This document shows positions 16,838-32,998 of a stretch of DNA of 34,783 nt, one piece after another. The stretch spans positions 1 through 34,783 of the forward strand of contig CANQOA010000020.1 of NCBI GenBank assembly GCA_947625355.1, written 5' to 3'. The notes under the pieces were generated by a model. It saw only the letters and a list, made by a program, of their open reading frames with translations. It did not search any database and was not told the origin of the DNA. The stretch comes from an uncultured Oscillospiraceae bacterium. GTDB taxonomy: Bacteria > Bacillota > Clostridia > Oscillospirales > Oscillospiraceae. The stretch's first letter is position 1. Each line of letters begins with the position of its first letter. Made by a program: the position numbers and the translations under genes.

Positions 16838-17275
16838 AGTATTTTTGAAGCAGATATCCACCTTGACACGATCGTGTTTATGGGGCTTCTCGCTCTTGGG
16901 GACCTCTATCCGCTGCATCAGGGAGTTCACTATGGTCGGCGTGAGTTCTTTCAGTTCCGCGCATTGCCGCTAAGTATATCCAACTCTCGGATGCGCTTAT
17001 GCCCATTCTCCTCCTGGGTACCATTCGTTGAAGATGTTATTGAAGGGCATCATCTCTGTGCCGCTCTCCCGGAGCGTGTCCACATTCTCCTGGATGGCGA
17101 TGAATCGGACGCCCAGCGTGGGGTACTTTATCTCCAGGTACTCGCCCACCTCCAGATAGTTGCGGCCAAAGCGGGACAGGTCTTTGACGATCACGGTACT
17201 GACAGCGCCGTCCTCCGCCATCTGCTGCATCCGCAGAAAGTCGTGCCGTTCAAAGGTCATGCCGGAGATACCGTT
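16838..17275 (-). pseudogene. Remnant of a large serine recombinase (TndX/Tn4451-type)
   Basis: Reading leftward, the remnant begins with D-N-G-I-S-G-M-T-F-E-R-H-D-F and continues through VIVKDLSRFGRNYLEVGEYL and FIAIQENVDTL to NNIFNEWY. This is the catalytic-domain core of a large serine recombinase (residues around 50-150 in intact relatives). The frame then breaks at about 17000. A shifted frame gives HKRIRELDIL, and another gives LTPTIVNSLMQRIEV and a tail like the end of such proteins (16848-16970). The N-terminal nucleophile serine region and most of the DNA-binding part are missing. It marks the left edge of the accessory island. It cannot be active. Confidence 0.85.
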
Positions 17276-18369
17276 ATCCAGTCCACTTCCTCCGCCTCGG
17301 TGAGAAGCGGCGGCTCAAGGCTCCGCAACATCCGGGCCACGACGCTCTCCGGCACGCTGTCCCGCCGGGACAGGTTCCGCCGCCGGCGTTCCTCCCATCC
17401 TGCCTCCAGATACTCTATCCGAACCGCCGCGCCGTAGCGGTGGAAGAGGTCTGTCCACCGGCCCCGGTTGGCCGGAGACAGGTTGGTGGCGTTGAATACG
17501 AAGGGCTTTTTGGCACGCAGCAGCGTCCGGGCCTGCTCCTGCGCGGCCCGGACCACCGCGCCGCCTCCGTCGTCGGGGGCTGCACCCAGCTCCTTTCGCA
17601 CTGCGTCCAGGGACACCATGGGCATGCCGCCGTACCGGGCGGCGATGTATGTGTCCTTGCCCGTGCCGGGCAGGCCGCTCACCATGACCACCGTGCCCCA
17701 GGCGGTATCGTAGACCTTCTGACCGGGTACCACAGCTCTGCCGGTCATATCCGCCCAGCGACTGGAGGCATCAGGATAGGGAAACGGCCCCCGCAGGCAG
17801 CCGGCCTCCTCCGCCAAGGCGCGGAACAGCGCCACGTCCTCCAGCCGCCTCGCCCGGTCGGGGCAGATCCGGCCCCGGATATCCGCCTCGGCCAGCACCG
17901 CCAGTTTCTCCAGCGTGAAAAGCTCCGTCAGCTCTCCCGCCGACGCCATCTGCCGCAGGGTCCGGGCCGGGTCGTCCCTCTCAAAGATATGCAGCGGCCG
18001 CATGTGCCAGCGGATGAGCAGACATACCACCTCCCGCAGGCGAAGAGCCTCCGGCGTACCGGCCAGGCCCAGCCCGGTCATCAGCCTTTCCCGGGCCATC
18101 TTCGCCCCCGCAGCGCTGTGGCCGGGGGCGGTCCACCGGCCGTCCTCCCACACGGTGCACCGGGCCTTGCCCAGATCGTGGAGAAGCCCTGCGGCCAGCA
18201 GCATCTGCTGGTCGTCTCCATCCAGCGCGAGGAACGACGGCTGCTCCGCCATGCTCGCTGTCACCAGCCGGGTATGGGCCAGCGCGTCCCCCTCTCCGTG
18301 CCAGACCGGGTCCTGCTGAACGCCCGCCAAGTCCGCCAGAAACGGCTCCAGGTTTTCAAGGGATATCAT
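17257..18369 (-). CDS. HD-Pnk: HD phosphoesterase fused to 5'-OH polynucleotide kinase
   Basis: 370 residues. The N-terminal HD domain (about 20-190) has an early His (HTRLV), the H64-D65 pair in LLHDLGKA, a later conserved His (IRWHMRPLHIF) and an Asp (LAEADIRGR). The C-terminal P-loop kinase (about 224-360) has GLPGTGKDT (232-240). SLDAVRKEL gives the D-x-x-R acceptor-binding motif of T4-type Pnk. NATNLSPANR and an Arg-rich lid (RRRNLSRRDSVPESVV) complete the set. Such HD-Pnk enzymes (characterised from Runella) remove 2',3'-cyclic or 2'/3' phosphates and phosphorylate 5'-OH ends, preparing broken RNA for ligation. The ATG at 18369 overlaps the ligase gene by 14 nt; a TTG five codons earlier is possible. 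The last residues (ITVSPA) are read out of frame from the recombinase remnant. Confidence 0.87.
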   Translation of the reverse strand: MISLENLEPFLADLAGVQQDPVWHGEGDALAHTRLVTASMAEQPSFLALDGDDQQMLLAAGLLHDLGKARCTVWEDGRWTAPGHSAAGAKMARERLMTGLGLAGTPEALRLREVVCLLIRWHMRPLHIFERDDPARTLRQMASAGELTELFTLEKLAVLAEADIRGRICPDRARRLEDVALFRALAEEAGCLRGPFPYPDASSRWADMTGRAVVPGQKVYDTAWGTVVMVSGLPGTGKDTYIAARYGGMPMVSLDAVRKELGAAPDDGGGAVVRAAQEQARTLLRAKKPFVFNATNLSPANRGRWTDLFHRYGAAVRIEYLEAGWEERRRRNLSRRDSVPESVVARMLRSLEPPLLTEAEEVDWITVSPA

Positions 18370-19165
18370 GGCTGTCACCGCCAAAAAGGGACTCCACCGG
18401 CACGGCCAGCCCGTTCGGCACGATGGGTCTGCTCTGCCAGTGGGATTCGGATAGCTGCACCGCCTGGTAGAAAGTGGGCCGAACGAATTTCATCCGGTCC
18501 GTGACCTGGCCGCCCTCCTCCACCTTGATGTAAAGCCCCTCCATGAGAGGCAAGGGATCCGTTTCCCGGACCTGCCGCTCCTCATCCAACCCCAGCCGGC
18601 GGCTGGTCCGGCGCAGAGCGTCCAAGTGGCTCTCGCCGCTGATGTAGTTGGACGGACCCAGAAGGGCAGTCAGCGTCGCCTTGTCCGTGAAAGCCCCTTC
18701 TGCCAGTACCGGCACAGATACTACCGGCAGTCCGGCCAACATGCCATGGCGAGTGGGGGTGTCTAAAAATATGCCCGTCTCCCGGTCCAGAATGTCGAAC
18801 TCCAAAAAGTAATGGGGGAGCATATCGTAGAACACCGTGTGTTTGGCGTACAGCCACTCGCCGTACATGACATACCTGCTCCCCAGCACGACCCGGAGCG
18901 CCTCCCGATGGACGCTGGCCCACTGCTTGAAGAGGTTATAATGCCGCTCCCGCCAGCCGCCGGTGAGGTAGTGGCCACGGCTCTGGAGGAGCAGCTCGCC
19001 ATGTTCGTCGAAGGATACGGCGGAGTTGGCTCCGTCGCACTTCTCCTCCACCACCAGATGCCGCCCGGCGATGACGTCGAAAGGGACCTGGCGCAGGTCC
19101 TCGTCTCCCGGCTGGAGCCGGGAGCCCTCCAGATGGGGCGTGCGAGGGTATTTGATAAGGTCCAT
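18356..19165 (-). CDS. ATP-dependent RNA ligase (nucleotidyltransferase family)
   Basis: 269 residues. Covalent nucleotidyltransferase motifs in order: motif I VVEEKCDGAN with the AMP-accepting Lys42; RG at 63-64; motif III YGEWLYAKHTVFYD and YFLEFDIL; motif IV MEGLYIKVEE; motif V MKFVRP (Lys226). The K-C-D-G form and the short C-terminus fit Rnl-type RNA ligases rather than NAD or ATP DNA ligases. It joins 3'-OH and 5'-phosphate RNA ends. It lies directly upstream of HD-Pnk, which makes those ends, and starts 2 bp after the methyltransferase stop with GGAGG 7 nt before the ATG. Confidence 0.88.
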   Translation of the reverse strand: MDLIKYPRTPHLEGSRLQPGDEDLRQVPFDVIAGRHLVVEEKCDGANSAVSFDEHGELLLQSRGHYLTGGWRERHYNLFKQWASVHREALRVVLGSRYVMYGEWLYAKHTVFYDMLPHYFLEFDILDRETGIFLDTPTRHGMLAGLPVVSVPVLAEGAFTDKATLTALLGPSNYISGESHLDALRRTSRRLGLDEERQVRETDPLPLMEGLYIKVEEGGQVTDRMKFVRPTFYQAVQLSESHWQSRPIVPNGLAVPVESLFGGDSHDIP

Positions 19166-19167
19166 GG

Positions 19168-19872
19168 CTATGCCTCCTCGCCTATGGCGGCCATAAGGAT
19201 GAGATGGCCCGGCACGCCGCCGAAGTGAAGCCGGTCACACCCGGCGTTTCGGAAAAGCTCCGTCAGCACCTGCTTGGTGAGCAGGTGGATGTGCTCGGGG
19301 TTATCGTCCTCTTTGCTGGGTACTGTCACGGCCACATACCGCCGGGCGATGCGCACCGCCGCCGTCACGGCGGCCTGCACGTCCGGAATGTGCTCCAGCA
19401 CCTCCAGCATGGTCACCACGTCCGCGCTCTTTTCCGGCAATGGGCAGGCGCAGACGTCTGCCCGCAGGGCCGTGAGCCGGTCCACGCCGCCCCGGCGGAT
19501 GTCCTCTAAAAAATCCACCCGGTAGTCCAGCAGGTCCAGGCTGGTCACCGGCACGCCGGGAAAAGTGTCCAGAAAGGGGAATAAAAACACGCCCCGGCCG
19601 CTGCCTACGTCCAGCAGACTCTCCGGCTGCACGCCCCGGAGGAAGCCCAAAATCTGCTTCACCCGTGGCATATCCTCATGACCCCGTTTGAAGCGGTAGA
19701 GCTTCACGCCCCAGGCCCGCCCTAAATCCAGCAGGGCCGTGAGGTCCTCCTCTGTCAGCGCCGCCAGGGGCTTTTCCCCCAGGGGCGCGGGCAGCGGCAG
19801 CCCCTCGCGGACGGCATGGCCCCGCACCGCCGCTGCGGCCAGGCGCTCATACATCCCATCGTGTGTCATCAT
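19168..19872 (-). CDS. Class I SAM-dependent methyltransferase
   Basis: 234 residues. Motif I LLDVGSGRGVFLFPFLD, the acidic end of strand two SLDLLDYR, motif II-like SADVVTMLEVLEHIPD and a later PEHIHLLT are visible. An N-terminal helical extension (1-75) precedes the fold. The E-x-x-E-H of LEVLEHI is shared by Hen1 RNA 3'-end methyltransferases but also by UbiG-like enzymes, so Hen1-like action is only a hypothesis from the RNA repair context. Its start overlaps the Sel1-protein stop by 4 nt. Confidence 0.85.
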   Translation of the reverse strand: MMTHDGMYERLAAAAVRGHAVREGLPLPAPLGEKPLAALTEEDLTALLDLGRAWGVKLYRFKRGHEDMPRVKQILGFLRGVQPESLLDVGSGRGVFLFPFLDTFPGVPVTSLDLLDYRVDFLEDIRRGGVDRLTALRADVCACPLPEKSADVVTMLEVLEHIPDVQAAVTAAVRIARRYVAVTVPSKEDDNPEHIHLLTKQVLTELFRNAGCDRLHFGGVPGHLILMAAIGEEA

Positions 19873-21002: not shown

Positions 21003-21180
21003 CGGCTCTTCCCTCCGGCCGGTAGGTCATGGCGATATACTTGCTCTCCCATACCGGGTCCCGCTTATCGTACTTGTCCATCCGGCAGTCGTGCCACAGG
21101 TCCTCCGCCACCTGATCGATGACGTTTCGAAGCTCCAGCCTGTCCAGGTGCTTTTTGGAAGCATCATTCAGGCTTATCAT
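20995..21180 (-). CDS. 61-residue protein of unknown function
   Basis: A small, highly charged protein (MISLNDASKKHLDRLELRN at the start; a WHDCRMDKYDKRDPVW middle; ending EGRADV). No membrane segment and no known motif. The ATG at 21180 has GGAG 6 nt upstream; an in-frame TTG five codons earlier is less likely. It overlaps the phosphoesterase gene by 17 nt and the Sel1 gene by 8 nt, and the Sel1 ribosome binding site lies inside it. The overlaps and its codon pattern support a real coupled gene. Confidence 0.65.
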   Translation of the reverse strand: MISLNDASKKHLDRLELRNVIDQVAEDLWHDCRMDKYDKRDPVWESKYIAMTYRPEGRADV

Positions 21181-22333
21181 CCTCTTCTCCGTCAAAGCGA
21201 TAATAGCCTCTGGCGATGCGCTTGCCGCTGGCCGGCGACACCGCCGTGATCTCCGCCCGGCCCGGGGCCAGGTCCAGCCAGAGGATGTTCCCTTCCGTCC
21301 ACTCCTTTGGCTGCAGCGTCTCCTCCGGCTTCAGGGTGGTGGTGCGGACGCTGCCGCCGTTGACGTACAGGATGTTCCTGCCCCGGTCCACCTCCACACA
21401 GCCGGCCGGACAGTTCATGGATATATGGGTATGCCCGGACAGAAACAGGATGTTCCGGTGGGCCTCAAGGATATCCTGCAATTGCCCGTCCCGGCTGAAG
21501 TAGGGCATGTCGTTGGGCCGGCGGCGCTGGGGATTATGGGCCAGCAGCGGCCCGTGACACAGCACCACGTGCCAGGCGGCCGCCGTGTCCGTGAGATGCC
21601 TGTCCAGCCAGGGGAGCTGCCCCTGCCTCTGAAAGGCCAGCCTCCGGCCCGGCTGGGCGGCGTTGAGGCCTATGATATCCATATCCCCCAGCCGTACGGC
21701 CCAGGCGCCGCTCGGGTCCCACTCTACGGCCAGGCCCAGCCGCTCCGCCCGGTCCAGCAGCCGCTCCTGCAGAGCGTAGTAGCCATCCCCGGTATCAGGC
21801 AGAAGGGGAAGATCATGGTTGCCGGCCACCGCCAGCATGGGCGTTTCCGGACGCAGGCGGTCCTCTATGAGCCGCCGCAAAAGCGCGAACTGCTCCGGTG
21901 TGCCGTCGTTGACCATATCCCCGGCGCACAGCACCCCGCCGCCCGTCCCGGCCATGGCCAGCGCCCGGCCCACCTGCCAAGGCTTACCGCTCAGGTGCAG
22001 GTCGGTGACGAAGCCCAGGCGGACAGCCCCCTCCATAGGCGGCGCGGGCCACCGGTCCGGCAGGGGGACGACAGCCTCCTCCGCCGCCATATCCGGCGTG
22101 ACGGCCCGGATGAAGATGTGGGTGGCCTCCCGGGGCACCGCCCGGCCGCCGGTGAAGCGGAACACGCCCCGGCCCGCCGGGTCTATGGGTACAAAGGCGA
22201 AGGCCGTCCAGTCCGCCAGCGGGCCCGCGTCATCTGCCCACCAGAGGCCCGCCATAAGGCTGCCCGCGGCATGGACCGTATACAGCCCGTCGGCGCCGCC
22301 GGGGCGTTCCCATTGGACCTGCAGCCGGATCAC
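21164..22333 (-). CDS. Calcineurin-like metallophosphoesterase
   Basis: 389 residues. An N-terminal beta-rich domain (1-105) of unknown role precedes the metallophosphoesterase fold. Metal ligands are visible in order: D-x-H in FVTDLHLSG, GDMVNDG, AGNHDLPLL, VLCHGPLLAHN and LSGHTHISM. Two-metal phosphoesterases of this kind act on nucleic acid ends, cyclic nucleotides or proteins. As first gene of the RNA repair operon an RNA-end substrate is plausible but unproven. The start is GTG at 22333 with GGGGAGG 5 nt upstream. No signal peptide. Confidence 0.88.
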   Translation of the reverse strand: MIRLQVQWERPGGADGLYTVHAAGSLMAGLWWADDAGPLADWTAFAFVPIDPAGRGVFRFTGGRAVPREATHIFIRAVTPDMAAEEAVVPLPDRWPAPPMEGAVRLGFVTDLHLSGKPWQVGRALAMAGTGGGVLCAGDMVNDGTPEQFALLRRLIEDRLRPETPMLAVAGNHDLPLLPDTGDGYYALQERLLDRAERLGLAVEWDPSGAWAVRLGDMDIIGLNAAQPGRRLAFQRQGQLPWLDRHLTDTAAAWHVVLCHGPLLAHNPQRRRPNDMPYFSRDGQLQDILEAHRNILFLSGHTHISMNCPAGCVEVDRGRNILYVNGGSVRTTTLKPEETLQPKEWTEGNILWLDLAPGRAEITAVSPASGKRIARGYYRFDGEEDDKPE

Positions 22334-22366
22334 ACCCGCACCTCCCCTGTTCCATGGTTTCCTTTT

Positions 22367-22396
22367 ATTCTAGTCTGCCTTGCCGGACAGTGTCAA
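22367..22396 (-). promoter_or_regulatory. Promoter of the RNA repair operon
   Basis: Minus strand TTGACA (22396-22391), 18 bp, TAGAAT (22372-22367), about 30 bp before the GTG start of the first gene. The 22334-22522 gap is AT-richer than its surroundings and also carries a CTTTATT/AATAAAG inverted repeat (22433-22467). Confidence 0.72.
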
Positions 22397-22496
22397 GTAC
22401 GCAATCAGCAGACACATTATAAAATAGAAAACTCTTTATTTCGGCGATTCTTTATGTTAGAATAAAGGATATTCAGCACGGTTTTGTCATTTTTTC

Positions 22497-22522: not shown

Positions 22523-23485
22523 TTGTCTGAATTCGTCTACGCCGGGACAGGCCAGAACATCCCGAAATTCTGCTTTCCCTCCCTGTACGATTTTGTGCAG
22601 CGCACCCGGGAGGAGCTCCAGAAGCCCCTTTCCCTGCCGGAATACGCCATTGCGGGAGAGGCGGAGCCCGTGAAGAAGGTCTCCGACATCATCCACGATG
22701 AGCCTTATAAGCTTCGGGACACCGTCAACATCGCTTTGGAGCAGTTCAGCAATAACTTCCAGTCGGGCAGCCTGCGGCCGGTCCCTTACCGGGAATATCC
22801 CACGCTGTACCGGGCCGCGCAGTTCACCGTCCAGACGGAAAAAAAGTTTGCGGACCTGGATGTGCTCATCCAGATCTACCGGGCCAAGTCCAAGGGGGAC
22901 CTGTACCAGGCACAGGCGATCAGCTACCTGAATAAGGCGTGGCTATTCATCTCCGAGCACCTCTTCATGCAGAGCAATACCGACATGCTGCGGGACGAGG
23001 AGATATGCTTTGTCCTGGGCCACGAGCTGGGCCACGCCCAGTGCCGCCATACGGTGATCCGCCTTCTGGCCGACAAGGACCTGGGGAGCAACGTGGAGTA
23101 CTCCGCGGACCGGGCGGGCATGATCGTATGCGCCAAACGGGCGCTCGCGCTGCACCCGGAGATGGACACCCGTCAGGCGCTGGGCCGGGCGGTGCTGTAC
23201 TGCGTGGCGGCGCTGGACAAGCTGGGTCTGGCCTACAAGGGCCATACGAACTGGAAGGATTATGACTACGACGCCCTGGAGCAGAAGCTCCAGACCTGGC
23301 TGGACGACCCGGGGAAGCTGCCGGCGGATTCGGCCACCCACCCCTGCGACGAGCGCCGGGCGCTGGCCCTTTACCACTTCAGCCAGTCGGAGATGCTCTG
23401 GCGTCTGCTGGACCTTACGCCGGAGGGCGGGCTGCTCACCGACAGCCAGCTGCGGCATTTCATGAACACACTGCTAAAAAAGTAG
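22523..23485 (+). CDS. Soluble M48-like zinc metalloprotease
   Basis: 320 residues. The zinc motif is VLGHELGHAQC (H167, E168, H171), followed by EYSADRAGM with the third ligand Glu192 and the conserved Asp196, as in M48 peptidases. Unlike HtpX or Ste24 types there is no membrane helix and no signal peptide, so it should act in the cytoplasm. Residues 1-120 are unassigned. The start is TTG at 22523, 8 nt after AGGAGG. First gene of the six-gene operon, 12 bp before the next. It may process one of the neighbouring dynamin-like proteins or a foreign protein on a signal. Confidence 0.82.
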   Translation: MSEFVYAGTGQNIPKFCFPSLYDFVQRTREELQKPLSLPEYAIAGEAEPVKKVSDIIHDEPYKLRDTVNIALEQFSNNFQSGSLRPVPYREYPTLYRAAQFTVQTEKKFADLDVLIQIYRAKSKGDLYQAQAISYLNKAWLFISEHLFMQSNTDMLRDEEICFVLGHELGHAQCRHTVIRLLADKDLGSNVEYSADRAGMIVCAKRALALHPEMDTRQALGRAVLYCVAALDKLGLAYKGHTNWKDYDYDALEQKLQTWLDDPGKLPADSATHPCDERRALALYHFSQSEMLWRLLDLTPEGGLLTDSQLRHFMNTLLKK

Positions 23486-23497
23486 GGGGGCGGAAAA

Positions 23498-25150
23498 ATG
23501 ACTGATCTTATGACCATACTGGGCTCCCTGCAGGATCAGGGTGTGGACACGTCTGCCGAGATGCTGCTCCTGCGGCAGAGGGAAAAAGCCGGGGAGCAGC
23601 CGGTCCTGCTCGTCGCCGGCGACGAGCCCGGTCAGCCGCTGGACCTGCTGAGGGGGCTTGGCATTGCGCCGCTGTGTCCGGCGGGGCAGTTCCTGCCCTA
23701 CCCTGTACAGTGCGTTTACGGAGATGCGCTGACTCTCACTGCCACGGACAGCCGCGGCGAGCGGCACCATTTCTACGATATCCCCTCCTTCCTGGCCCAC
23801 GGCGGCGGGGACGTGAAAAAGCTCACCGTCACGTCGGACGCGCCCGTCCTTCGCAGGGCGGGCCTGCGCATCATCACCGTGACGGAAGACACGCTGGCAG
23901 ACCTGGGCCGGCTGGCCGGCGACTGCTCCGGCGTGATCCTGACGCTGGACAGCTCCGCCGGAGCGCCGGAACCCGCTGTCGGCAGTCTGTGCCAGTGGCT
24001 GCGGGACGCCGCCGGCCTGGAAGGCAGCGTATGCCTGCTGCTCAATCACACGGAGACCGGCGCCGTCAACTGGATGCTGGAGTCCATGCTGGACGTGGAA
24101 CCGGTGGAAACGGTGCCCTGCGACTATACGGCGGCGCCGGGCTCGGCAAAGCATCCCGCCGGGGCGCTGGCGGCGGCGATGGACGCGCTGCCCGGCGGCG
24201 ACGCCGGCGCCTTTGGCGCGCAAGCCCAGTGTGCCGCGGCGGCCCTCGGGAAGCTGAAGGCCCGCCGCTCCCGGCTGGAGGAAGAGGCCGGTCAGAAGCG
24301 CAAGGACGCCAAGTGGTTTTATAACAGCGCGGATGTCTTCCGCGCCAAGATGCAGATAGCCTGCACGGCCATGACCATCAGCCTGAACGAGGAGCAGAAG
24401 GCGCTCCTCAACGCCAATGTCAACGGCCTGAAGGAGCGGCTGAAAGCGGAGCTGCCCGGCATGGCCGCAGAGCTGGTGGCGCAGAACGGGTCTCAGGCCA
24501 AGAGCGACGCGCTCAACCTGGCTGGGGATTATGTGGAAGCCCTGTGCAACAGCTATATGGAGTTCGCCACCCGCTATTTGGCCGACAGGCTCTTCCGCCC
24601 CCAGGCGGAGGCTGTGTTCCTGGAGGCGACGGAGGGCTACAGGACCCTTGTCCGTCAGGCGCCCATACCGGTGGCGCAGTGGACATCGGAACGGGACACG
24701 GAGATCCTCAAGACCATCCAGGTCGGCCACGTGGATCCCAAGGGCCCGCTGGCCGAGACCCTGGGCAACGTCTTCGTGCTGGCCTTCGGGCTGGCGCTGG
24801 ATGAGTATCTGGGCGGCTTTGCCTTCACCCTGGGCCGGAAGCTGGAGCAGTTCATCTCCAGTCTGGCGATCAAGGCGATACCCACAAAGGCGCTGGTGAA
24901 CCATTTTATCCGGGACCGGCTGATCCCAAAGCTGGACGATCTGATGCCGACGATGTACAAGGCCCTGGATGAGACCATCCTTCCCCAGGTCAGCAGCGAC
25001 ATCCGCGCCAGTTTCCAGGATATGATCGGGCGCAGCTGCGCCGTCTTGGAGGAACAGGGCGGCGCCCTTATCCAGCAGGCGGATGATCTGACCGGCCGGA
25101 TGCAGGCGCTGGACGACATCAGTGCGCAGCTGGAAGCGTACACACTATAA
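23498..25150 (+). CDS. Dynamin-like pseudo-GTPase (P-loop lost), unknown function
   Basis: 550 residues, not recognised by itself. Read against its two downstream neighbours it keeps the outline of a GTPase domain: PVLLVAGDEPGQPLDLLRGL (35-54) sits where they have VAVIGATSSGKSALIN. A YDIP segment takes the place of DTPG, and GVILTLDSSAG plus SVCLLLNHTE resemble the strands around G4. The P-loop lysine and serine are missing, so nucleotide hydrolysis is unlikely. The rest is long-helical (e.g. KLKARRSRLEEEAGQKRKDA), with a moderately hydrophobic stretch near 425-445 (LGNVFVLAFGLALDEYLGGF) that could touch membrane. It probably pairs with the active GTPases. The assignment to the dynamin superfamily is inference. 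Confidence 0.6.
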   Translation: MTDLMTILGSLQDQGVDTSAEMLLLRQREKAGEQPVLLVAGDEPGQPLDLLRGLGIAPLCPAGQFLPYPVQCVYGDALTLTATDSRGERHHFYDIPSFLAHGGGDVKKLTVTSDAPVLRRAGLRIITVTEDTLADLGRLAGDCSGVILTLDSSAGAPEPAVGSLCQWLRDAAGLEGSVCLLLNHTETGAVNWMLESMLDVEPVETVPCDYTAAPGSAKHPAGALAAAMDALPGGDAGAFGAQAQCAAAALGKLKARRSRLEEEAGQKRKDAKWFYNSADVFRAKMQIACTAMTISLNEEQKALLNANVNGLKERLKAELPGMAAELVAQNGSQAKSDALNLAGDYVEALCNSYMEFATRYLADRLFRPQAEAVFLEATEGYRTLVRQAPIPVAQWTSERDTEILKTIQVGHVDPKGPLAETLGNVFVLAFGLALDEYLGGFAFTLGRKLEQFISSLAIKAIPTKALVNHFIRDRLIPKLDDLMPTMYKALDETILPQVSSDIRASFQDMIGRSCAVLEEQGGALIQQADDLTGRMQALDDISAQLEAYTL

Positions 25151-25174
25151 TGATCGGAAAGAGAGGAGACAACC

Positions 25175-27313
25175 ATGGATCGCAATACAGGGGCAAACAG
25201 CCGCATGATGCTGGACGCGCGGGAGGAATTGGTCCGGGCCGCCGAGGGGCTGGCCTCCGCGGCCAATGACATGGGCGACGAGCTCAACGCCGCTGGTCTT
25301 CACCTCCTTATCCCCCGGCTCCGTCAGGGCCTGGTCCGTGTGGCCGTGATCGGCGCCACCAGCTCCGGCAAGAGCGCCCTTATCAACGCCATGCTCGGCC
25401 GTCTGGTGGTTCCGGAGAACCCCAACGTGTCCTCCCCCATCCCCGTGTGGATCGGGTACCGGGAAGGGGAGCCGGCGGTAAAGATCTATAAGTCCCCTGC
25501 CGACGCGCCGGATCAGATGCAGACAGAGGACTGTTCCATCGAAACGTTCCAGGTCCAATACTGCTATAATGCGGAGCATTTCCGGAAGCGTGACGAGGAC
25601 CACTTCAGCGATATCCGCTACGGCGCGGTGTCGGTCTCGAGCGGCTGTCTGCAAAACGGTGCCGTATTCATCGACACGCTGGGCATCGCCGCCTCCGCCA
25701 TAGACACCGCCAAGACCCACGGCGTGCTGGAGGAGGGCGTCGATCTGGTGCTGTTCGTGACGAAGAACAACTCCTTCACCAGCACAGAACGGGATTTCAT
25801 CCAGGACTACCTACTGGGCGTCCGGCCAGAAAAGCACCAGGTCTATCATCCCGTGGCGCCCCGGAACATCCTGTTCGCGGTCAATCCTTTCGGCCTGGCC
25901 GCGCCCGACCGCACCGCTGTGGAGAGCAGCATCCGGGAGGTGCTGGCGCCATGTGGCCTCGGCGATAAAGACATGGCCGCTCTCCTGCGGGACAACGTGT
26001 TTTACATCAACGCTCTGAAGGGGCGCTACGCCGCCTGCGGCTCCTATCCTTATGCGGCGCTGGCCCCGGCCGGCTCCACCGAGCGGGACAAGAAGAGCCT
26101 GGCCCGGAAGCAGGCCGACGAGGAGGACATCCTCTCCTGCGACAGCAAAGAGCAGCTGTGGAACGCCTCCGGCGTGGGCGCGCTGCTGGATGGGCTGGCG
26201 TCCCATGTGCGCCGGCAGAGCTTTGGAGCGGACTCCGCCGTCGTCCGCCGGATACGGGAGCTGTCGTCCCTGGCCGGCCAGCTGCAGTTGGCCGCCTCCA
26301 ACCGGCTCACCGCCGCCACGGCCGTCCAATCGGAGCTGAACGCCACGAAGTCCGTTCTCGCGGTCCAGGAGTCCTCTATCTCCCGGGAGAAGACGCAGAT
26401 CAGCAAGGCGGTGCAGAACCTGCAAAACGAATACATAAGCGCCATGGCGAAGGTCTACAGCGACACGGCGGAGCAGATGGAAAAGGACTGCGTCGAGCGC
26501 GCCAGGAACTATCCCATGCCCCAGGATTTCGACGTCCACTGGAATCAGTTCCGCCATCTGGACGACCAGCGCAAGCAGCAGTACCTGGAGCTGTTCCTGC
26601 CCGGGCTCAAGGACGCCATCCAGGCCCGCTGCATCGAGGTGGTGCTGAGCAAGATGGACGTCAACGACCCCGGCCTGGCCCTGGAAAAGACCCGGGGGTT
26701 CATCCAGGACACGGGCAAGAGCCTGAACGCGTATGTGCAGGGGCTGAAGGACTGCGGCGCCAATGCCCTGGGCATCCCCCTGCCCACCCAGGAGTCCATC
26801 GAGGCGCTGAACGGACAGCTGAGAAAGGACCTGGAGGACGGCGTCTCCGGCGCCATCCGGCAGAGCATCGCCGACGCCGGCAGCCGCTTCCAGCAGAAGA
26901 TGACCCGGTATATCCGCTCCATCCGATGGGGCATGCTGGGACTGTTCGATTTCCTGCCCCACGGCAAGGCGGCCTTCTGGGACCGGGTCCGGCAAAGGGT
27001 ATTCGTCCCGCTGGCGGAACAACTGGCGGAGGAGGTGGCCGTCATCGCCAAAAACGCCGACGAGCCCCAGTCCGCTCTGGCCGTGCAGATCAGCGGCAGC
27101 TTCTCCGCCATGGAGGGCACGCTGCGCGATAACCTGACCAGCCTTCTGACGCTCGTCACGCTCCGTGTGACGGAGCTGGAAGGGCAGATCGCCCGCCAGG
27201 AGCGCAAAAACGACGGCGAGCTGGCCCGCTACGAGGCCCTGAAGGAGCGCTGCCAGGCATTGATCCAGGAGCTCAACGAGTGGAGCGACCGGTTCCTGAA
27301 CATGGCCGGGTGA
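25175..27313 (+). CDS. Bacterial dynamin-like GTPase (first active copy)
   Basis: 712 residues. G1 P-loop GATSSGKS (60-67); G2 region NVSSPIPVWI; G3 FIDTLG (167-170); the G4 position reads AVNPFG, not the usual NKxD. A long helical region follows (about 340-712) with coiled-coil-like parts (e.g. QSELNATKSVLAVQESSIS), the expected stalk. There is no clear transmembrane paddle. Bacterial dynamin-like proteins bind and fuse or protect membranes and often act as adjacent unequal pairs. It starts 24 bp after the pseudo-GTPase gene and ends 10 bp before the next one. Confidence 0.82.
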   Translation: MDRNTGANSRMMLDAREELVRAAEGLASAANDMGDELNAAGLHLLIPRLRQGLVRVAVIGATSSGKSALINAMLGRLVVPENPNVSSPIPVWIGYREGEPAVKIYKSPADAPDQMQTEDCSIETFQVQYCYNAEHFRKRDEDHFSDIRYGAVSVSSGCLQNGAVFIDTLGIAASAIDTAKTHGVLEEGVDLVLFVTKNNSFTSTERDFIQDYLLGVRPEKHQVYHPVAPRNILFAVNPFGLAAPDRTAVESSIREVLAPCGLGDKDMAALLRDNVFYINALKGRYAACGSYPYAALAPAGSTERDKKSLARKQADEEDILSCDSKEQLWNASGVGALLDGLASHVRRQSFGADSAVVRRIRELSSLAGQLQLAASNRLTAATAVQSELNATKSVLAVQESSISREKTQISKAVQNLQNEYISAMAKVYSDTAEQMEKDCVERARNYPMPQDFDVHWNQFRHLDDQRKQQYLELFLPGLKDAIQARCIEVVLSKMDVNDPGLALEKTRGFIQDTGKSLNAYVQGLKDCGANALGIPLPTQESIEALNGQLRKDLEDGVSGAIRQSIADAGSRFQQKMTRYIRSIRWGMLGLFDFLPHGKAAFWDRVRQRVFVPLAEQLAEEVAVIAKNADEPQSALAVQISGSFSAMEGTLRDNLTSLLTLVTLRVTELEGQIARQERKNDGELARYEALKERCQALIQELNEWSDRFLNMAG

Positions 27314-27323
27314 GGAAACGCAT

Positions 27324-29624
27324 ATGGACGAGTTTGATGATTTCTGGTCATCCGTGGGCCTGAAGGATGACGGCCTGCCGTCGGATGAGGAGGTCCTGGA
27401 GCAGGAGCGCGCCGACGCCCGGCGCGACCGGGAATGGATCCTGGAGCAGTTTGACCAATACAGGGCTCTGACTGATAAACTGGTCCAGATCGTCACGGAC
27501 AGCCCCTTGGACGAGACACAGAAGATGGATCTTCTCTCCGCGCTGACAAAGGTGCGCTGCCGCCTTATGCAGGAGCCTGTGCGCCTGCTGGTGCTGGGCG
27601 CGTCCAGCGCCGGCAAGAGCACCCTCGTCAACGCCCTGACCGGGCGGATAGTCTCCCCCGAGGCGCAGCACAGCAGCACCCTCATCCCCGCCTGGATCCG
27701 CTCCGTGGACAAGGATCTGCACGGAGAGGTGGAATACAACATCATGAAGCGGGACATGACCACGCGATACATGGCCCGGCCCGCCTACCTGAAGATGTAC
27801 TGCCATCCCCCGGAGGATAAGAACACCAACCCGGACGACTACGCGGTCATCGCGGATGTGGAGGGCGGCTTTCTGGCGGACAGCGGACTGATGCTCCTGG
27901 ACACCCCCGGCGTGGACCAGACGGATGCCGACACTGATATGACGGTGCGGACGGCGGACCTGGGCGCGGAGATGGTACTGATGATCATCCGCAGCAACGT
28001 CTTTTCTCAGCAGGAGACGGCCCTATTCAAAAAGCTCTTCCCCGACGGGGAGCTGGACCTGGGCCTCGATATGCAAAGCGACGTGTTCTCCGTGTACAAC
28101 GTGATGCCCGGCAACCCCGACCCACCCTCCAACGTGGTCGACAGCATCCGGGAGCTGACCGACGGGAAGCTGGACACGAACGAGCGGCTGTACTCCATCG
28201 ACATGCTCCAGGAGCGGCAGCGGTTCGAGCCCTACCGCTATTACGACTGGGCCCCTCTGAATATCAGCAGCCCGGAAGAGATCCAGAAGCTGAAGGCGGA
28301 CCAGCACCGGGAAAAGCACGGCTATACCGTGGGCGCCAGACAGAGGCCCTACGGGTATGACCTGCTGAAGGACACCCCGCCCGGCCCGGAGATGAAGCGG
28401 CTGACGGATGCCCTGCGCCGCCGGGCCTGGACGCTTTACGCCAAAAAGGAGCGGACATGCACGCCTGTTCTCAGTGCGCTCAGCGACATTCTTGGGCAGA
28501 TCAAACAGGCGCTGACGAGCCAGCTCGACGAGATCAGACGGAACGCGGAAGAGGACGCCCGCAAGATAGACGGTACAGAGCTGATTTCCTACTCTCCCGA
28601 GTTTTCCGAACGGTTGGGCAAACTGAATGCCTTCGACCAGAAGTCCGAGGAGATATGCCAGCAGCAGCAAAAGCTTCTGGCGGATGTGGACAACGTCAAA
28701 AGCCGGCTGGGCGAGGCGGCGGACTACCTGAAGACCGCCGCCGGCACGAAGTTCGCCCCTGCCTCGGAGCTGTTCAAGAACGTCGACACGAGCATGTCCG
28801 CTCTGCGCAAGGACGCCCAGGGCATGGTCGACCGCCTCCGCCTCCGCGTCCGGTTTTTATCCCAGCACTGGCAGGGCAAGCTCACGGGAGAGTCGTTTCT
28901 GCTGGACGACAGCAAGGCCATTCGCCGCATCGATATACAGGACATCCTGGCCAATCTCGGGAATGACTACAACCACCTGGCGGGAAGAGTGAACGAGCTC
29001 ATCGGAGGCGGTTCCATCCGCAAGCTCGAACCAGAAAAGGCCGCGAACAGGCTGATGAAAAAATACGACAGGGATGTCTCCAAGGACCTCACCAGCAATG
29101 TAGACATCGAGGAGGCCACACGGGGCATAGGCCGCCACCCCCTGCTCGCTGACGAAAGGGCGCCGGGAGAGGACGCTGTACCGGTGGTGATGGACGACGG
29201 CCCCGGGCGGCCCCTGGCCAGCCGTGCGGAAGCCAAGATCTTTAACAGGGCCCTGCTGGCCGCTATCAACGTCCAGACCAAGGGTGCGCTCAGCCAGCTG
29301 GAAACGAAGGACCTTATCGCCTTCACCGACGGCATACGCGCCTTTGCCGACACGGTCGAGCGCAGCGGCTATATCGCGGCCATACGCGATGCTCCGTTCA
29401 AGGAGACGCTGGACGAATACCGGGAAAAGCTCGAGGAAAAGGCCGTACAGGCTGCGGCGGAGGCGTACGACGCCATCGCCGAGCAGCTATTCCAGGAGCG
29501 GTCCGGCCCCCAGCAGACCAGCCTCTGCGATCTTGCCAAAGTGTTTGATGCCGTCGTCGAGCTTCTGGTGACCCTGGCGGAGGAAAACCCAGAGGAAGAG
29601 GCAGAAGCCCTTAGCAAGGCGTGA
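27324..29624 (+). CDS. Bacterial dynamin-like GTPase (second active copy)
   Basis: 766 residues. An acidic N-terminus (1-35), then G1 LGASSAGKSTLVNALTG (P-loop 92-100), G2 Thr in SSTLIPAW (about 119) and G3 MLLDTPGVDQTDADTD (DTPG at 193-196). A degenerate G4 reads VYNVMPG. A long helical stalk follows, with coiled-coil-like segments (e.g. LTSQLDEIRRNAEEDARKI). The G motifs are closer to consensus than in the preceding protein. The unequal tandem pair recalls two-component bacterial dynamins (LeoA/LeoBC-like, Campylobacter DLP1/DLP2). The gene is 10 bp from its upstream neighbour and shares its codon use. Confidence 0.84.
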   Translation: MDEFDDFWSSVGLKDDGLPSDEEVLEQERADARRDREWILEQFDQYRALTDKLVQIVTDSPLDETQKMDLLSALTKVRCRLMQEPVRLLVLGASSAGKSTLVNALTGRIVSPEAQHSSTLIPAWIRSVDKDLHGEVEYNIMKRDMTTRYMARPAYLKMYCHPPEDKNTNPDDYAVIADVEGGFLADSGLMLLDTPGVDQTDADTDMTVRTADLGAEMVLMIIRSNVFSQQETALFKKLFPDGELDLGLDMQSDVFSVYNVMPGNPDPPSNVVDSIRELTDGKLDTNERLYSIDMLQERQRFEPYRYYDWAPLNISSPEEIQKLKADQHREKHGYTVGARQRPYGYDLLKDTPPGPEMKRLTDALRRRAWTLYAKKERTCTPVLSALSDILGQIKQALTSQLDEIRRNAEEDARKIDGTELISYSPEFSERLGKLNAFDQKSEEICQQQQKLLADVDNVKSRLGEAADYLKTAAGTKFAPASELFKNVDTSMSALRKDAQGMVDRLRLRVRFLSQHWQGKLTGESFLLDDSKAIRRIDIQDILANLGNDYNHLAGRVNELIGGGSIRKLEPEKAANRLMKKYDRDVSKDLTSNVDIEEATRGIGRHPLLADERAPGEDAVPVVMDDGPGRPLASRAEAKIFNRALLAAINVQTKGALSQLETKDLIAFTDGIRAFADTVERSGYIAAIRDAPFKETLDEYREKLEEKAVQAAAEAYDAIAEQLFQERSGPQQTSLCDLAKVFDAVVELLVTLAEENPEEEAEALSKA

Positions 29625-29678
29625 TATACAGATCCACACGCTTTTTAAACATAAGACAATACCATCGGAGGGATCGTT

Positions 29679-30539
29679 ATGGACTATGCGTACAACGCGA
29701 TGAAACAGGCCCGGGGCGGGAACGCCCTGTCCGCGGACATGAGCCCGGAGGCCTTTTCCGCCGCCGTGGGCGCGGTCTGGGACCGGGTCATCACCGCCGT
29801 GGCGGAGCGCACCGCCGGGGACAGTGTCCTTGCCGGGGCATACCGGGGCGTGCTCAACCAGGCCAGGGCCTCCACCGTGGACTTTCAGTGGCTGGGTCAG
29901 CCAAAGGGCTACGTATCCGGAGAGAGCCGCCGACAGGTCCGGCCCATCAAATATGTGCTGCCCCTGCCGGCGGCGGCGCTGCTCGTCTGGGGCGTTTTCA
30001 GCGGCCAGGTGACCCGCCGGCCCGTCACCATCGCCCTCTCAGCGGTGACGCTAGCGCTGCTTCTGGCTGGCGTCTTTCTGGCCATATCGGACGATCTGAA
30101 GGCCGGCCCGACGGGCTCTGTCCACGTGGAGCAGCGCGTCAACGTCCCGGCGGCGTGGAGCAGCCTGGAGCGCATCGCCTCGGCGGCGGACAAATATGCC
30201 GCTGCGCTGTACGCCCACATCTCCCAGTATAACAGCGCCCCGGGCACCCCGGACGGGATGGCGCTGGCGAAGGCGCTGCTGGACTGGGACTGCCAGGAGG
30301 CTCAGGTCCCGGAGGACATCCGCACGGAGCTGCGGGTGTATCTGAACGGCCAGGGCATCGAGGCGATACAGTACGCCCCCGAGCGGAGCGAGCTGTTCCA
30401 GCTCATGCCCTCCAACGGCGAGCGCACGATCCGTCCCGCCCTGGTGCGGAAGGTCAGGGGCGCTGACGGCACGGAGCAGACGGTCCTGCTGGAGCGGGGC
30501 CTTGCCTGCGTGAGATCGGAAACGATAGGGACGGTTTGA
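29679..30539 (+). CDS. Two-helix membrane protein of unknown function
   Basis: 286 residues. A helical N-terminal part (1-88) precedes two membrane helices (about 90-108, LPLPAAALLVWGVF, and 116-136, VTIALSAVTLALLLAGVFLAI). The C-terminal part (140-286) is mixed. I recognise no family. It is the only clear membrane protein of the operon, so it is the likely membrane anchor for the dynamin-like proteins and the Hsp70-like ATPase. GGAGGG lies about 8 nt before the ATG; the 54-bp gap to the previous gene is the largest in the operon. Confidence 0.72.
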   Translation: MDYAYNAMKQARGGNALSADMSPEAFSAAVGAVWDRVITAVAERTAGDSVLAGAYRGVLNQARASTVDFQWLGQPKGYVSGESRRQVRPIKYVLPLPAAALLVWGVFSGQVTRRPVTIALSAVTLALLLAGVFLAISDDLKAGPTGSVHVEQRVNVPAAWSSLERIASAADKYAAALYAHISQYNSAPGTPDGMALAKALLDWDCQEAQVPEDIRTELRVYLNGQGIEAIQYAPERSELFQLMPSNGERTIRPALVRKVRGADGTEQTVLLERGLACVRSETIGTV

Positions 30540-30543
30540 GCTT

Positions 30544-32265
30544 ATGAACAACACCAGATTTTACGGCATAGACATAGGCGACGGCGAGACCGCCGCCGCT
30601 TGGGTATCGGCGGACGCTGCTCTGCTCCCCCACGTCGTCACCCTGGGGAGCACGAAGAGCATGCTCTCCGTGGCGGGCAACCTGAACGGGAAGCCGGTGG
30701 TCGGGGATCAGGCGCTTCTCCAGCCCGGCGTGGCGGACATAAAGGCCCGCTTCAAGAGCCGTTTCCTCACGGACCCCGACGCGGGTCAGACAGTGTCCCT
30801 GTTCGCCCGGGGCCTGTACGAGCACGTAAAGGGCGATATGGCAGGCGCCTCGGAGGTCAGCGTGGCGCTGGGGGTGCCGGCGGGCTGGACAAAGGAGGAG
30901 CGCCAGCAGTACGCGGCGATCGTGGGGGCGGCGGGCTTCCCGAACCTGCACACGGCGGCGGAATCCCGCGCCGCCTTCCTCTACGCCCGGTATGACACGG
31001 ATATCGGCCTCTCCCCGGAGGCTCTGCGCCAGCCGGCGCTGGTCATCGACATCGGCTCCTCCACCACCGACTTCGCCTATATCGTGGACGGCAAGGAGAG
31101 CGAGGTGGGCGTGTTCGGCAACGTCCGTCTGGGCGGCGGACTGCTGGACCGGCTCATCCTGGACGACGCCGTGGACGGCTCGCCCAAATGCGACCAGATC
31201 CGGGCGGTCTTCAGCCAGTACCCCTCCTGGCGGAGCCTGTGCGAGCTGGAGGCCCGAAAGCTCAAGGAAAAATACTTCTCCGACGAGGCCCAGTGGGCGG
31301 AGCGGCCCTGCGTGACCAAGGTCCCCATATACGCCGACGTGAACGCGGGACTGAGCCTTGCCATCTCCCTGAACAGGGCGCGGATGGAGCGGCTTTTGAA
31401 GGCGCCGATGACGGAGCTGGGGGACGTTTCGTTCCCTGAGAAGCTGCGGCAGGCCCTCGCCCTGGCGGCGGAGAACACCGCCACACACCCGCCCATGCTC
31501 CTCATCCTCACGGGCGGCGCCTCGCGGATGGCCTTTTTCCGGCAGGCCTGCCGGGACGCCTTCCCCCAGGCCAACGTGGTCTGCTGCAAGGAGCCGGAGT
31601 TCTCCATCGCCCGGGGTCTGGCCATCGCCGCCAGGATGGACTGGCAGCTGGCCGTCTTCCGGCAGGAGATAGAGGCCTTCTTTGCCGGAGGGGCCCTCCG
31701 CAAGGACATCGACGCCCATCTGCCCACGCTGCAGGAAAAGCTTACCCCCGTCCTGCAGCAGCGGATCATGACCCGCTGCGTCACCCCCGCGCTGCAGCAG
31801 GATTTCAAGACTTGGGAGCAGCTGGATACGCTTATACATGACAACATAAAGAAGGAATTCCAGGCCCAGAGCCGCACCACCGAGACCGACGCGATCATCG
31901 CCGACTGGATCGGCACAGAGCTGACCGGGACCCAGCAGCATCTGGACGAGATATGCGTCCGCAACGATATGGAGAAGGCGGATATGTCCATGTCCAGGAT
32001 CGGTGTGAATGTAAAACTGGAGGGCCTCGCGGGCCGCCGCGCCCTGTTGCCGACACTGTTGATGAAGGCGGTCCTGTCTTGGCTTCATATCCATCTTCCT
32101 TTTGTTCCTCCCGTGGGTGCCGGCAGATGGATCCGGGTGGCTCTGCAAAATGAGCTGACGGACCCCGACAGCGATTTTGCCAAAGACCTGGCGGAGAGCA
32201 TGGAGACGGAGCTGCGCGCTCAGATACAGAGCAACGTGGATAAGGTGGAGATGGTCATCTCCTGA
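30544..32265 (+). CDS. Hsp70/actin-fold ATPase without a classical substrate-binding domain
   Basis: 573 residues. Phosphate-1 motif YGIDIGDGET (7-16), phosphate-2 motif VIDIGSSTTDF (167-177) and adenosine motif ILTGGASRM (321-329) are intact. An Hsp70-like VALGVPAGWTKEER replaces the usual VPAYF region. Beyond residue 360 the beta-sandwich substrate domain and the acidic C-terminal tail of DnaK are absent. Instead there is a helical region and a hydrophobic stretch near 496-520 (LPTLLMKAVLSWLHIHLPF). It may use ATP to load or disassemble the dynamin-like proteins. It starts 4 bp after the membrane protein gene with only a weak ribosome binding site, suggesting coupling. Confidence 0.82.
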   Translation: MNNTRFYGIDIGDGETAAAWVSADAALLPHVVTLGSTKSMLSVAGNLNGKPVVGDQALLQPGVADIKARFKSRFLTDPDAGQTVSLFARGLYEHVKGDMAGASEVSVALGVPAGWTKEERQQYAAIVGAAGFPNLHTAAESRAAFLYARYDTDIGLSPEALRQPALVIDIGSSTTDFAYIVDGKESEVGVFGNVRLGGGLLDRLILDDAVDGSPKCDQIRAVFSQYPSWRSLCELEARKLKEKYFSDEAQWAERPCVTKVPIYADVNAGLSLAISLNRARMERLLKAPMTELGDVSFPEKLRQALALAAENTATHPPMLLILTGGASRMAFFRQACRDAFPQANVVCCKEPEFSIARGLAIAARMDWQLAVFRQEIEAFFAGGALRKDIDAHLPTLQEKLTPVLQQRIMTRCVTPALQQDFKTWEQLDTLIHDNIKKEFQAQSRTTETDAIIADWIGTELTGTQQHLDEICVRNDMEKADMSMSRIGVNVKLEGLAGRRALLPTLLMKAVLSWLHIHLPFVPPVGAGRWIRVALQNELTDPDSDFAKDLAESMETELRAQIQSNVDKVEMVIS

Positions 32266-32370: not shown

Positions 32371-32607
32371 ATGAAAGTAAAGCAGAAGGGGCAGGAAATG
32401 GAGCAGCTCCGGCGGGAGGGGAAAACATACCGGGAGATCGCCTCGGCAGTAGGTCTGCGAAAAGGGCAGGTAAAAGAATACTTTGAGCGAAGCCGACAGA
32501 AGGCACGCAGACGCGGCTATCTGCGCAGCAAGAAAGCAGGCGGCTTAAAGACCAACCAGGCACTGCGCAGCGAACGGAAGCGTCTGCGGAGGGAAGTGGA
32601 TCTTTTT
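32371..32607 (+). pseudogene. Truncated IS3-like OrfA (helix-turn-helix transposase subunit)
   Basis: About 79 recognisable residues: a helix-turn-helix (LRREGKTYREIASAVGLRKG with the following KEYFERSR), a basic stretch (KARRRGYLRSKKAGG) and a leucine-zipper-like segment (LRSERKRLRREVDLF), as in OrfA of IS3-type elements. After about 32607 the frame runs into unrelated sequence and the catalytic OrfB is missing. The stretch 32608-32688 shows only an imperfect TTGGCCCC/GGGGTCAA repeat. Confidence 0.6.
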
Positions 32608-32688
32608 TGGGACGAAAATTTGGCCCCAGGCGAGACAAATTGGGGTCAAGCTTTTGCGGCCTTCCCCACTGTAAGGACGGGCCTGCCT

Positions 32689-32998
32689 TTATTTCCGCAT
32701 GGTGGAGGCCCGCCAGATGGGGACAGTGCGGACATAGGTGCTGCGGAAGGGACGGCCGGGATTCTCGATCCGCTCCAGAAGGATGTCCGCGGCCAGCCGG
32801 CCGATCTCGGCGCCGGGTATCTGCACCGTGGTGAGGGACGGCTCCACCACGGCGGACTGGGGCGTGCCGTCGAATCCGGCTACCATGACCCGGTCGGGGA
32901 TGGAGACGCCCATCTGCTTGAGCGCCATCATCAGGTGGATGGCGATGAAGTCGTTGGCGCACAGCAGCGCGTCCGGCAGCACCGGCATCCTGCGCAGC
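32689..32998 (-). pseudogene. C-terminal fragment of a LacI-family regulator
   Basis: About 103 residues reading leftward: LPDALLCANDFIAIHLMMAL, GVSIPDRVMVAGFDGTP, LTTVQIPGAEIGRLAADILL, ending in TVPIWRASTMRK. These are the last strands of the periplasmic-binding-protein-like effector domain of LacI/GalR regulators. The helix-turn-helix and the first lobe are absent; the sequence meets the GH32 fragment head-on at about 32999. No start codon or ribosome binding site, so not functional. Confidence 0.82.

What the first reader, a model, noticed from the sequence alone, without database searches (positions are those of the whole stretch)
22523..32265. Six-gene operon: M48-like protease, three dynamin-like proteins, membrane protein, Hsp70-like ATPase
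The genes are packed 4-54 bp apart on one strand. Seen directly: HELGH protease, two P-loop dynamin-type GTPases, a degenerate third, a two-helix membrane protein and an actin-fold ATPase. Dynamin-like pairs are established as membrane remodelling proteins and, in some cases (Eleos/LeoBC-like), as phage defence. The combination with a soluble metalloprotease and an Hsp70-like ATPase is not a named system that I know. Inference: a membrane surveillance or repair machine, or abortive-infection type defence, with the ATPase loading or unloading dynamin polymers and the protease acting as trigger or effector.
Basis: partly seen in the sequence, partly recalled or inferred. Interest (0 to 1): 0.88.

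Follow-up and report, generated by a model that had tools for sequence, protein, structure and literature searches.

The report
Dynamin pair with Hsp70 and protease
A rarely carried set of bacterial genes combines a pair of membrane-bending dynamin-like GTPases with a protease and what looks like a private, membrane-tethered Hsp70 machine next to RNA-repair-type genes, so it is probably a membrane-protection or defence device that has no name yet.

The parts
22523..23485 (+). P0001, soluble M48-type metalloprotease; HELGH at 23021-23035, EYSADRAG downstream
   Evidence: Pfam M48 2.3e-08; copies in L101 (42%) and L112 (52%) keep HELGH and EYSADRAG; no strong TM segment
23498..25150 (+). P0002, no known family; mixed N-terminal part, long helices suggested in the C-terminal part; not shown to be a dynamin
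   Evidence: Copies in L101 and L112 at 24% and 36%; no Pfam family; hhalign against both dynamins below 1%; model pLDDT 44
25175..27313 (+). P0003, dynamin-like GTPase 1; P-loop GATSSGKS at 25352-25375
   Evidence: Dynamin_N 3.3e-13; 3-row profile's best PDB match is bacterial dynamin-like protein 2j68, 2.6e-14; copies 31% and 48%
27324..29624 (+). P0004, dynamin-like GTPase 2; P-loop GASSAGKS at 27597-27620
   Evidence: Dynamin_N 4.2e-12; homologous to P0003 over the GTPase part, hhalign probability 99.8; copies 24% and 32%
29679..30539 (+). P0005, two-helix membrane protein; TM hairpin about 29961-30101; GrpE-like C-terminal domain about 30237-30518
30544..32265 (+). P0006, actin/Hsp70-superfamily ATPase, partner of P0005
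   Evidence: MamK 1.2e-05, DnaK 0.0037, below cut-offs; actin-like ATPase 5jyg 3.3e-05; many invariant columns in the ATPase part of 42 sequences
21164..22333 (-). Divergent metallophosphoesterase; neighbour, not part of the six-gene unit
   Evidence: Pfam Metallophos 7.6e-11; absent between operon and methyltransferase in L112
19869..21002 (-). Sel1-repeat protein; neighbour
   Evidence: Pfam Sel1 2e-11
19168..19872 (-). SAM methyltransferase of the RNA-repair-like cassette
   Evidence: Pfam Methyltransf_23 3.5e-11; best NCBIfam row is MftM 9.2e-20, below cut-off, and Hen1 is not listed for it; the G273 copy has MftM 3.2e-19 and Hen1 2.9e-06, both below cut-off
18356..19165 (-). RNA ligase of the RNA-repair-like cassette
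   Evidence: Pfam RNA_ligase 2.2e-31; present in 10 of 35 genomes of the genus
17257..18384 (-). HD-domain plus AAA_33 kinase of the RNA-repair-like cassette
   Evidence: Pfam AAA_33 2.8e-23, HD 4.9e-06; Pnkp only 0.00032

Best explanation
It is one accessory operon encoding a chaperone-serviced dynamin machine at the cell membrane. Shown by sequence: a heterotypic pair of dynamin-like GTPases, a soluble M48-type protease, an unplaced protein, and an actin/Hsp70-superfamily ATPase with an adjacent membrane protein. Supported by a model, not proven: that membrane protein carries a GrpE-like exchange-factor domain on a two-helix anchor, so the ATPase is probably a private Hsp70 held at the membrane. 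Inferred: the two dynamins co-assemble on damaged or invaded membrane and tether or seal it; P0002 links them to the machine; the tethered ATPase/GrpE-like pair takes the assembly apart or recycles it; the protease cuts one component as a switch or a brake. Inferred from company and patchy occurrence: it serves in biological conflict (phage or toxin attack), beside genes that would repair RNA and, in some relatives, remove ADP-ribose.
For: Same order M48 - P0002 - DLP1 - DLP2 - membrane protein - ATPase in G273, another genus, whose ATPase gene is cut by the contig end; first four genes in G697, contig then ends; G708 keeps collinear fragments of the promoter side, P0002 and the ATPase only. 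Motifs kept in the copies. GrpE match for P0005 residues 187-280, the only listed row for that part; profile comparison of the P0005-family C-terminal alignment with 30 GrpE proteins gives 17.5% (13.2% with another slice) against 0.2-0.5% when it is set against five other profiles; the highest control against GrpE was 7.4%. Membrane-protein gene directly upstream of the ATPase gene in 69 of 83 loci, median gap 2 bp. The genome has an ordinary grpE elsewhere, so this pair is extra. Patchy: 2 of 35, 1 of 25. RNA-ligase cassette in 10 of 35 genomes of the genus, near the operon or its remnant in G000, G697, G708, and also present in G273. Precedent: the DLP beside Nostoc BDLP1 bears a DnaJ-like domain (PMC6104087, passages).
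Confidence: 0.5

Rival explanations
1. A membrane-maintenance operon without a role in conflict: the dynamin pair with its own chaperone repairs or reshapes membrane during envelope stress or division, and patchy occurrence reflects niche.
For: Bacterial DLPs with known roles act in membrane stress, division and related tasks (PMC6104087, passages). No defence model matches over its length. P0003 not found on phage or plasmid records.
Against: Present in 2 of 35 genomes of the genus and decayed in a third; neighbours include RNA-repair-type genes, in relatives macro, VWA-like and ADP-ribosylglycohydrolase genes, and near the same cassette DO-GTPase-like or kinase genes elsewhere.
Confidence: 0.3
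2. Two independent modules that happen to adjoin: M48-P0002-DLP1-DLP2 and the membrane protein-ATPase pair, each working alone.
For: The pair is widespread alone; G697 shows only the first module, though its contig ends there.
Against: Both modules are together in G000 and G273, and G708's remnant has P0002 and ATPase fragments in the same order. The P0006 of G273 is the closest relative found, 56% over residues 5-215 (only its N-terminal part is on the contig) against 32-35% over longer spans for the other 15 matching family genomes; the N-terminal part is the more conserved one, so the contrast is somewhat overstated.
Confidence: 0.15
3. A member of the described DO-GTPase/GAP1 GTPase-centric conflict systems.
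For: Those systems often pair two GTPases, may carry HSP70 and GrpE, and are predicted to act near the membrane (PMC7159879 sections 27 and 29). A genome of the same genus has two DO-GTPase2-like genes (one above, one below Pfam's cut-off) with an M48 near the same cassette.
Against: P0003 and P0004 match Dynamin_N, and no DO-GTPase or FNIII family is listed at E <= 1 for any of the six proteins.
Confidence: 0.05

Closest known systems
DO-GTPase / GAP1-N2 conflict systems with HSP70 and GrpE (Kaur et al. 2020, PMC7159879; sections 27, 29 and passages read)
   Same: GTPases often as two paralogues, membrane components, HSP70 and GrpE in one theme, mobile neighbourhoods; two DO-GTPase2-like genes with an M48 lie near the same cassette in G716
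   Different: GTPases here are dynamin-like; no DO-GTPase or FNIII family; the GrpE-like domain is on a two-helix membrane anchor; soluble M48 and P0002 added
Bacterial dynamin-like pairs (C. jejuni DLP1/2, Nostoc BDLP1; PMC6104087, passages read)
   Same: Side-by-side DLP genes in an operon; Dynamin_N; best PDB match BDLP 2j68; the BDLP1 neighbour has a DnaJ-like domain
   Different: An ATPase plus GrpE-like partner and a protease in the operon; not described in the passages read
LeoABC (PMC4159319, abstract start in listing) and Eleos (recalled)
   Same: Bacterial dynamins encoded together; weak PADLOC LeoA/LeoBC hits
   Different: Hits are partial; LeoABC has no protease, Hsp70 or GrpE-like gene as far as recalled
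Mitochondrial OMA1-OPA1 (PMC10078952, abstract start in listing; M48 assignment of OMA1 recalled)
   Same: An M48 protease in one pathway with a dynamin-like GTPase under stress
   Different: OMA1 is membrane-bound (recalled) and cuts OPA1; here the protease is soluble and the substrate unknown
DnaK-GrpE
   Same: Adjacent actin/Hsp70-fold ATPase and GrpE-like domain
   Different: Membrane-anchored partner; matches only in the ATPase part and below Hsp70 cut-offs
Pnkp1-Rnl-Hen1 RNA repair (PMC4411300, abstract start in listing)
   Same: The neighbouring cassette has ligase, kinase and methyltransferase
   Different: Separate gene architecture with an HD domain; Hen1 and Pnkp hits are weak and the methyltransferase is nearer MftM

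Membership tests
Bacterial dynamin-like pair | Two adjacent genes with dynamin GTPase domains and intact P-loops | tested here: met
   Dynamin_N in P0003, P0004 and the copies in L101 and L112; P-loops conserved. In G273 a small TM gene lies between the two
Bacterial dynamin-like pair | GTP-dependent assembly on membrane | not testable with these tools
   Needs biochemistry
LeoABC / Eleos | Full-length LeoA and LeoBC models | tested here: not met
   Only partial hits: LeoBC 1e-06, best stretch 251-378 of 601; LeoA about 6e-06, best stretches of 24-28 positions
DO-GTPase/GAP1 systems | DO-GTPase domain | tested here: not met
   No DO-GTPase family listed for the six proteins at E <= 1, while the same library finds DO-GTPase2 in G716, 1.2e-06 above and 7.5e-05 below cut-off
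DO-GTPase/GAP1 systems | GAP1 protein | tested here: inconclusive
   No GAP1 family listed for the six proteins; I saw no GAP1 model fire anywhere as a control, and P0002 remains unplaced
DO-GTPase/GAP1 systems, second theme | HSP70 with GrpE | tested here: inconclusive
M48 peptidase | HExxH plus downstream glutamate motif | tested here: met
   HELGH and EYSADRAG in 3 of 3 copies; Pfam hit in P0001 and, at the cut-off, L101; none at E <= 0.01 in L112
Hsp70 | Actin/Hsp70-superfamily ATPase fold | tested here: met
   Partial MreB, MamK and DnaK hits, actin-like ATPase 3.3e-05; invariant columns
Hsp70 | Hsp70 rather than another superfamily member | tested here: inconclusive
   Pfam HSP70 not listed for P0006; a relative scores 20.1 bits against a cut-off of 20.6; PDB Hsp70 only E 0.18
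Hsp70 | Beta substrate-binding domain | tested here: inconclusive
   No match to it; no model of P0006 was made
GrpE | GrpE sequence model | tested here: not met
   No Pfam or NCBIfam GrpE hit; profile probability 17.5% at most
GrpE | GrpE head and beta-wing fold | tested here: inconclusive
Anti-phage system | Protection against phage | not testable with these tools
   Needs experiment

The most novel reading that the evidence does not exclude
A bacterial counterpart of the OMA1-OPA1 switch with its own chaperone: a heterotypic dynamin pair assembles on attacked membrane, an M48 protease cuts a component to set its state, and a membrane-tethered Hsp70/GrpE-like pair takes the assembly apart, all inside an exchangeable conflict island that also repairs RNA and handles ADP-ribose. 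It would be a dynamin-based branch of the GTPase-centric conflict systems.
Probability: 0.2. Interest if true: 0.85.

Novelty: new variant of a known kind. Interest (0 to 1): 0.62.

Why it matters
Few bacterial dynamins have known partners or regulators (recalled). An operon that binds a dynamin pair to a private actin/Hsp70-fold ATPase with a membrane-anchored GrpE-like protein and to a protease offers a compact system in which chaperone control of dynamin assemblies can be tested directly. If it is defensive, it adds a dynamin branch to GTPase-based conflict systems and suggests that unrelated GTPase pairs, each with an M48 protease, are exchanged in one chromosomal neighbourhood.

Tried and rejected
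P0002 as degenerate dynamin: profile comparisons, whole and split, gave below 1%; PDB profile search gave nothing (best E 1); single-sequence model unusable. Kept as unplaced.

LeoABC/Eleos and DO-GTPase membership: tested and not met. SrfABC was recalled as another Hsp70-plus-GTPase set; one paper search with SrfB, SrfC, dynamin found 0 papers, and no SrfB/SrfC family is listed. Not followed further.

Mobile-element origin: P0003 in plasmids, phages and (2-row profile) viral contigs; P0004 in plasmids and viral contigs; P0001 (2-row profile) in viral contigs; P0006 in phages: no relatives. P0006, and a relative of it, in plasmids: one remote relative, Calothrix.

Wider search for the dynamins: P0004 in 391 class genomes, 3-row P0003 profile in 394 order and 398 phylum genomes, each found only the window. 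In the rows shown at most 2 candidates per genome were scored, and genomes are samples, so absence is weak.

GrpE by sequence: the P0005-family profile against PDB gave no GrpE. Direct BLASTP of P0005 with the Calothrix upstream protein gave nothing; only the profile comparison did. M48 of G716 and P0001 align only around the HExxH motif.

Literature: in the held open-access library (10 of 10). Papers opened: PMC7159879 (passages, sections 27 and 29), PMC6104087 (passages), PMC11237479 (passages; no dynamin or HSP70 in it, one DO-GTPase mention). None of the listings or passages read describes this gene set. Subscription papers are mostly not held and bioRxiv not searched, so this is not proof that it is unpublished.
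Full report
What is there. The window is G000:C20:1-34783 of a 2.1 Mb, 78-contig genome. Six ORFs lie on the + strand between 22523 and 32265 with gaps of 12, 24, 10, 54 and 4 bp. The first begins with TTG behind AGGAGG. Pfam gives M48 (2.3e-08) for P0001 and Dynamin_N for P0003 (3.3e-13) and P0004 (4.2e-12), nothing above cut-off for P0002, nothing for P0005, and a sub-threshold MreB match for P0006. NCBIfam and PDB place P0006 in the actin/Hsp70 superfamily, below family cut-offs (MamK 1.2e-05, DnaK 0.0037; actin-like ATPase 5jyg 3.3e-05, Hsp70 0.18). In 42 aligned sequences many columns of the ATPase part are invariant, among them those I take, from recall, as the nucleotide site. The 3-row P0003 profile matches bacterial dynamin-like protein 2j68 at 2.6e-14.

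P0002. Its three copies show no P-loop lysine, and hhalign against the dynamin profiles gives below 1%, while the two dynamin profiles match each other at 99.8%. The single-sequence model has pLDDT 44 and only suggests long helices after residue 236. I leave it unplaced.

The last two genes are a widespread module. A scan of genome contigs with P0006 gave 140 relatives, 80 kept as loci at 31-39% identity, many from ruminant guts by record title. In 69 of 83 loci with a called ATPase ORF, a P0005-family gene lies directly upstream on the same strand, median gap 2 bp (68 of 79 with at least 900 bp upstream); of the 11 misses with enough sequence, 8 still have a tblastn match to P0005. These 83 include unnamed family genomes, some of which probably duplicate named ones, and the G273 locus. 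Profiles of M48, P0002 and the two dynamins found nothing better than E 0.03 among 1053 called ORFs of L004-L099; the small-TM profile found G273's own gene and two weak rows (0.0076, 0.021). Of these loci 39 hold at least 7.5 kb upstream. A remote pair lies on a conjugative Calothrix plasmid: ATPase 28%, upstream gene matching the P0005-family profile at 93% probability though not P0005 alone by BLASTP. So the pair is old and can be mobile, and the six-gene set is the pair with four more genes.

The six-gene set recurs. In G273, another genus of the family, the order is macro - VWA-like - M48 - P0002 - DLP1 - small TM protein - DLP2 - small TM protein - P0005 - P0006 until the contig ends (Pfam, VWA below cut-off). 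Identities are 42, 25, 32 and 25% for the first four genes, 30% for P0005 and 56% for the N-terminal part of P0006 that is present. In G697, same genus, the first four genes are present at 51, 34, 47 and 33% and the contig ends; no P0006 relative is found elsewhere in that 73%-complete genome. In G708, same genus, blastn finds collinear fragments matching window 22292-22442, 23479-23597 and 30523-30858 at 80-93%, and no match between them: a remnant after deletions. Occurrence is patchy: 2 of 35 genomes of the genus with the P0003 profile, 1 of 25 of the genus of G273, 2 of 300 of the family with P0004, only the window in 391 class, 394 order and 398 phylum genomes. P0006 relatives of any kind: 17 of 300 family genomes.

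The neighbourhood. Divergent from the operon lie a metallophosphoesterase, a Sel1 protein, a methyltransferase, an RNA ligase and an HD/AAA_33 kinase. The methyltransferase is nearer MftM than Hen1 and the kinase matches Pnkp only weakly, so 'RNA repair' rests mainly on ligase plus kinase. The ligase occurs in 10 of 35 genomes of the genus. The operon or its remnant lies within 3 kb of this cassette in G000, G697 and G708, and G273 has the cassette with an ADP-ribosylglycohydrolase on a separate small contig. Three of three among 10 of 35 has probability 0.018, but G708 came to notice only because ligase-bearing genomes were fetched; with the two intact copies alone it is about 0.08, and ancestry is uncorrected. 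Near the cassette other genomes differ: G294 has kinase-LRR, VWA-like and macro genes and G216 an ADP-ribosylglycohydrolase and a macro-type gene by sequence start; the G294 kinase matches PD-T4-6 models, probably because both are protein kinases. G716 has an M48 and two DO-GTPase2-like genes, one above and one below Pfam's cut-off, on one strand. G695 and G700 show other genes there. DO-GTPases define a class of conflict systems, some with HSP70 and GrpE (PMC7159879, sections 27 and 29). Two unrelated GTPase pairs, each with an M48, thus occur beside one cassette; the two M48 proteins share only the motif region.

How it most likely works. For relatives: most bacterial dynamins come as pairs in operons and a studied pair tethers membranes (PMC6104087, passages), and the DLP next to BDLP1 carries a DnaJ-like domain, so a dynamin-Hsp70 link has precedent. 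Inferred here: P0003 and P0004 co-assemble at the membrane, P0005 tethers P0006 and drives its nucleotide exchange, the ATPase recycles the assembly, and the protease cuts a component as a switch. OMA1 cutting OPA1 is the nearest analogy (PMC10078952, abstract start in listing), but the protease here is soluble and its substrate unknown. If P0006 is actin-like in function, a filament would take the place of the chaperone cycle. A role in conflict is inferred from neighbours, patchiness and decay.

Novelty. The parts are known kinds and the combination is not described in anything I read; the ten searches are listed in Tried and rejected. I call it a new variant of a known kind: a dynamin-based relative in design, not in membership, of GTPase-centric conflict systems.

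Noticed in passing
window 32689-34186: C-terminal part of a LacI-type regulator on the - strand (Pfam Peripla_BP_3 6.2e-25) abuts a GH32 gene on the + strand whose match starts at profile position 66: a deletion junction or an assembly error.
   Followed up: partly
window 32371-32640: Start of an ORF with a helix-turn-helix-like stretch (weak Sigma70_r4_2) directly downstream of the operon; looks like a mobile-element or terminase-small-subunit remnant by reading only.
   Followed up: partly
L128 9144-19022 (G716): Near the RNA-ligase cassette: an M48 gene and two DO-GTPase2-like genes with several unplaced proteins on one strand; no GAP1 family was listed.
   Followed up: partly
L125 10329-14558 (G294), L127 13457-14488 (G216): Kinase-LRR, helix-turn-helix, VWA-like and macro genes near the RNA-ligase cassette; G273 has macro and VWA-like genes just before its dynamin operon.
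   Followed up: partly
L166 9838-12743 (AP018209.1): A remote membrane protein plus Hsp70/actin-fold pair on a conjugative Calothrix plasmid between integrase genes.
   Followed up: partly
A11, relatives of P0006: Most aligned relatives are about 637 aa and the consensus has a glycine-rich hydrophobic stretch in the C-terminal part that P0006 (573 aa) seems to lack or shorten.
   Followed up: no
L101 7012-7512 and 9654-10151: Two similar small membrane proteins, one before and one after DLP2, in G273; not in the window or in the part of the operon read in G697.
   Followed up: partly
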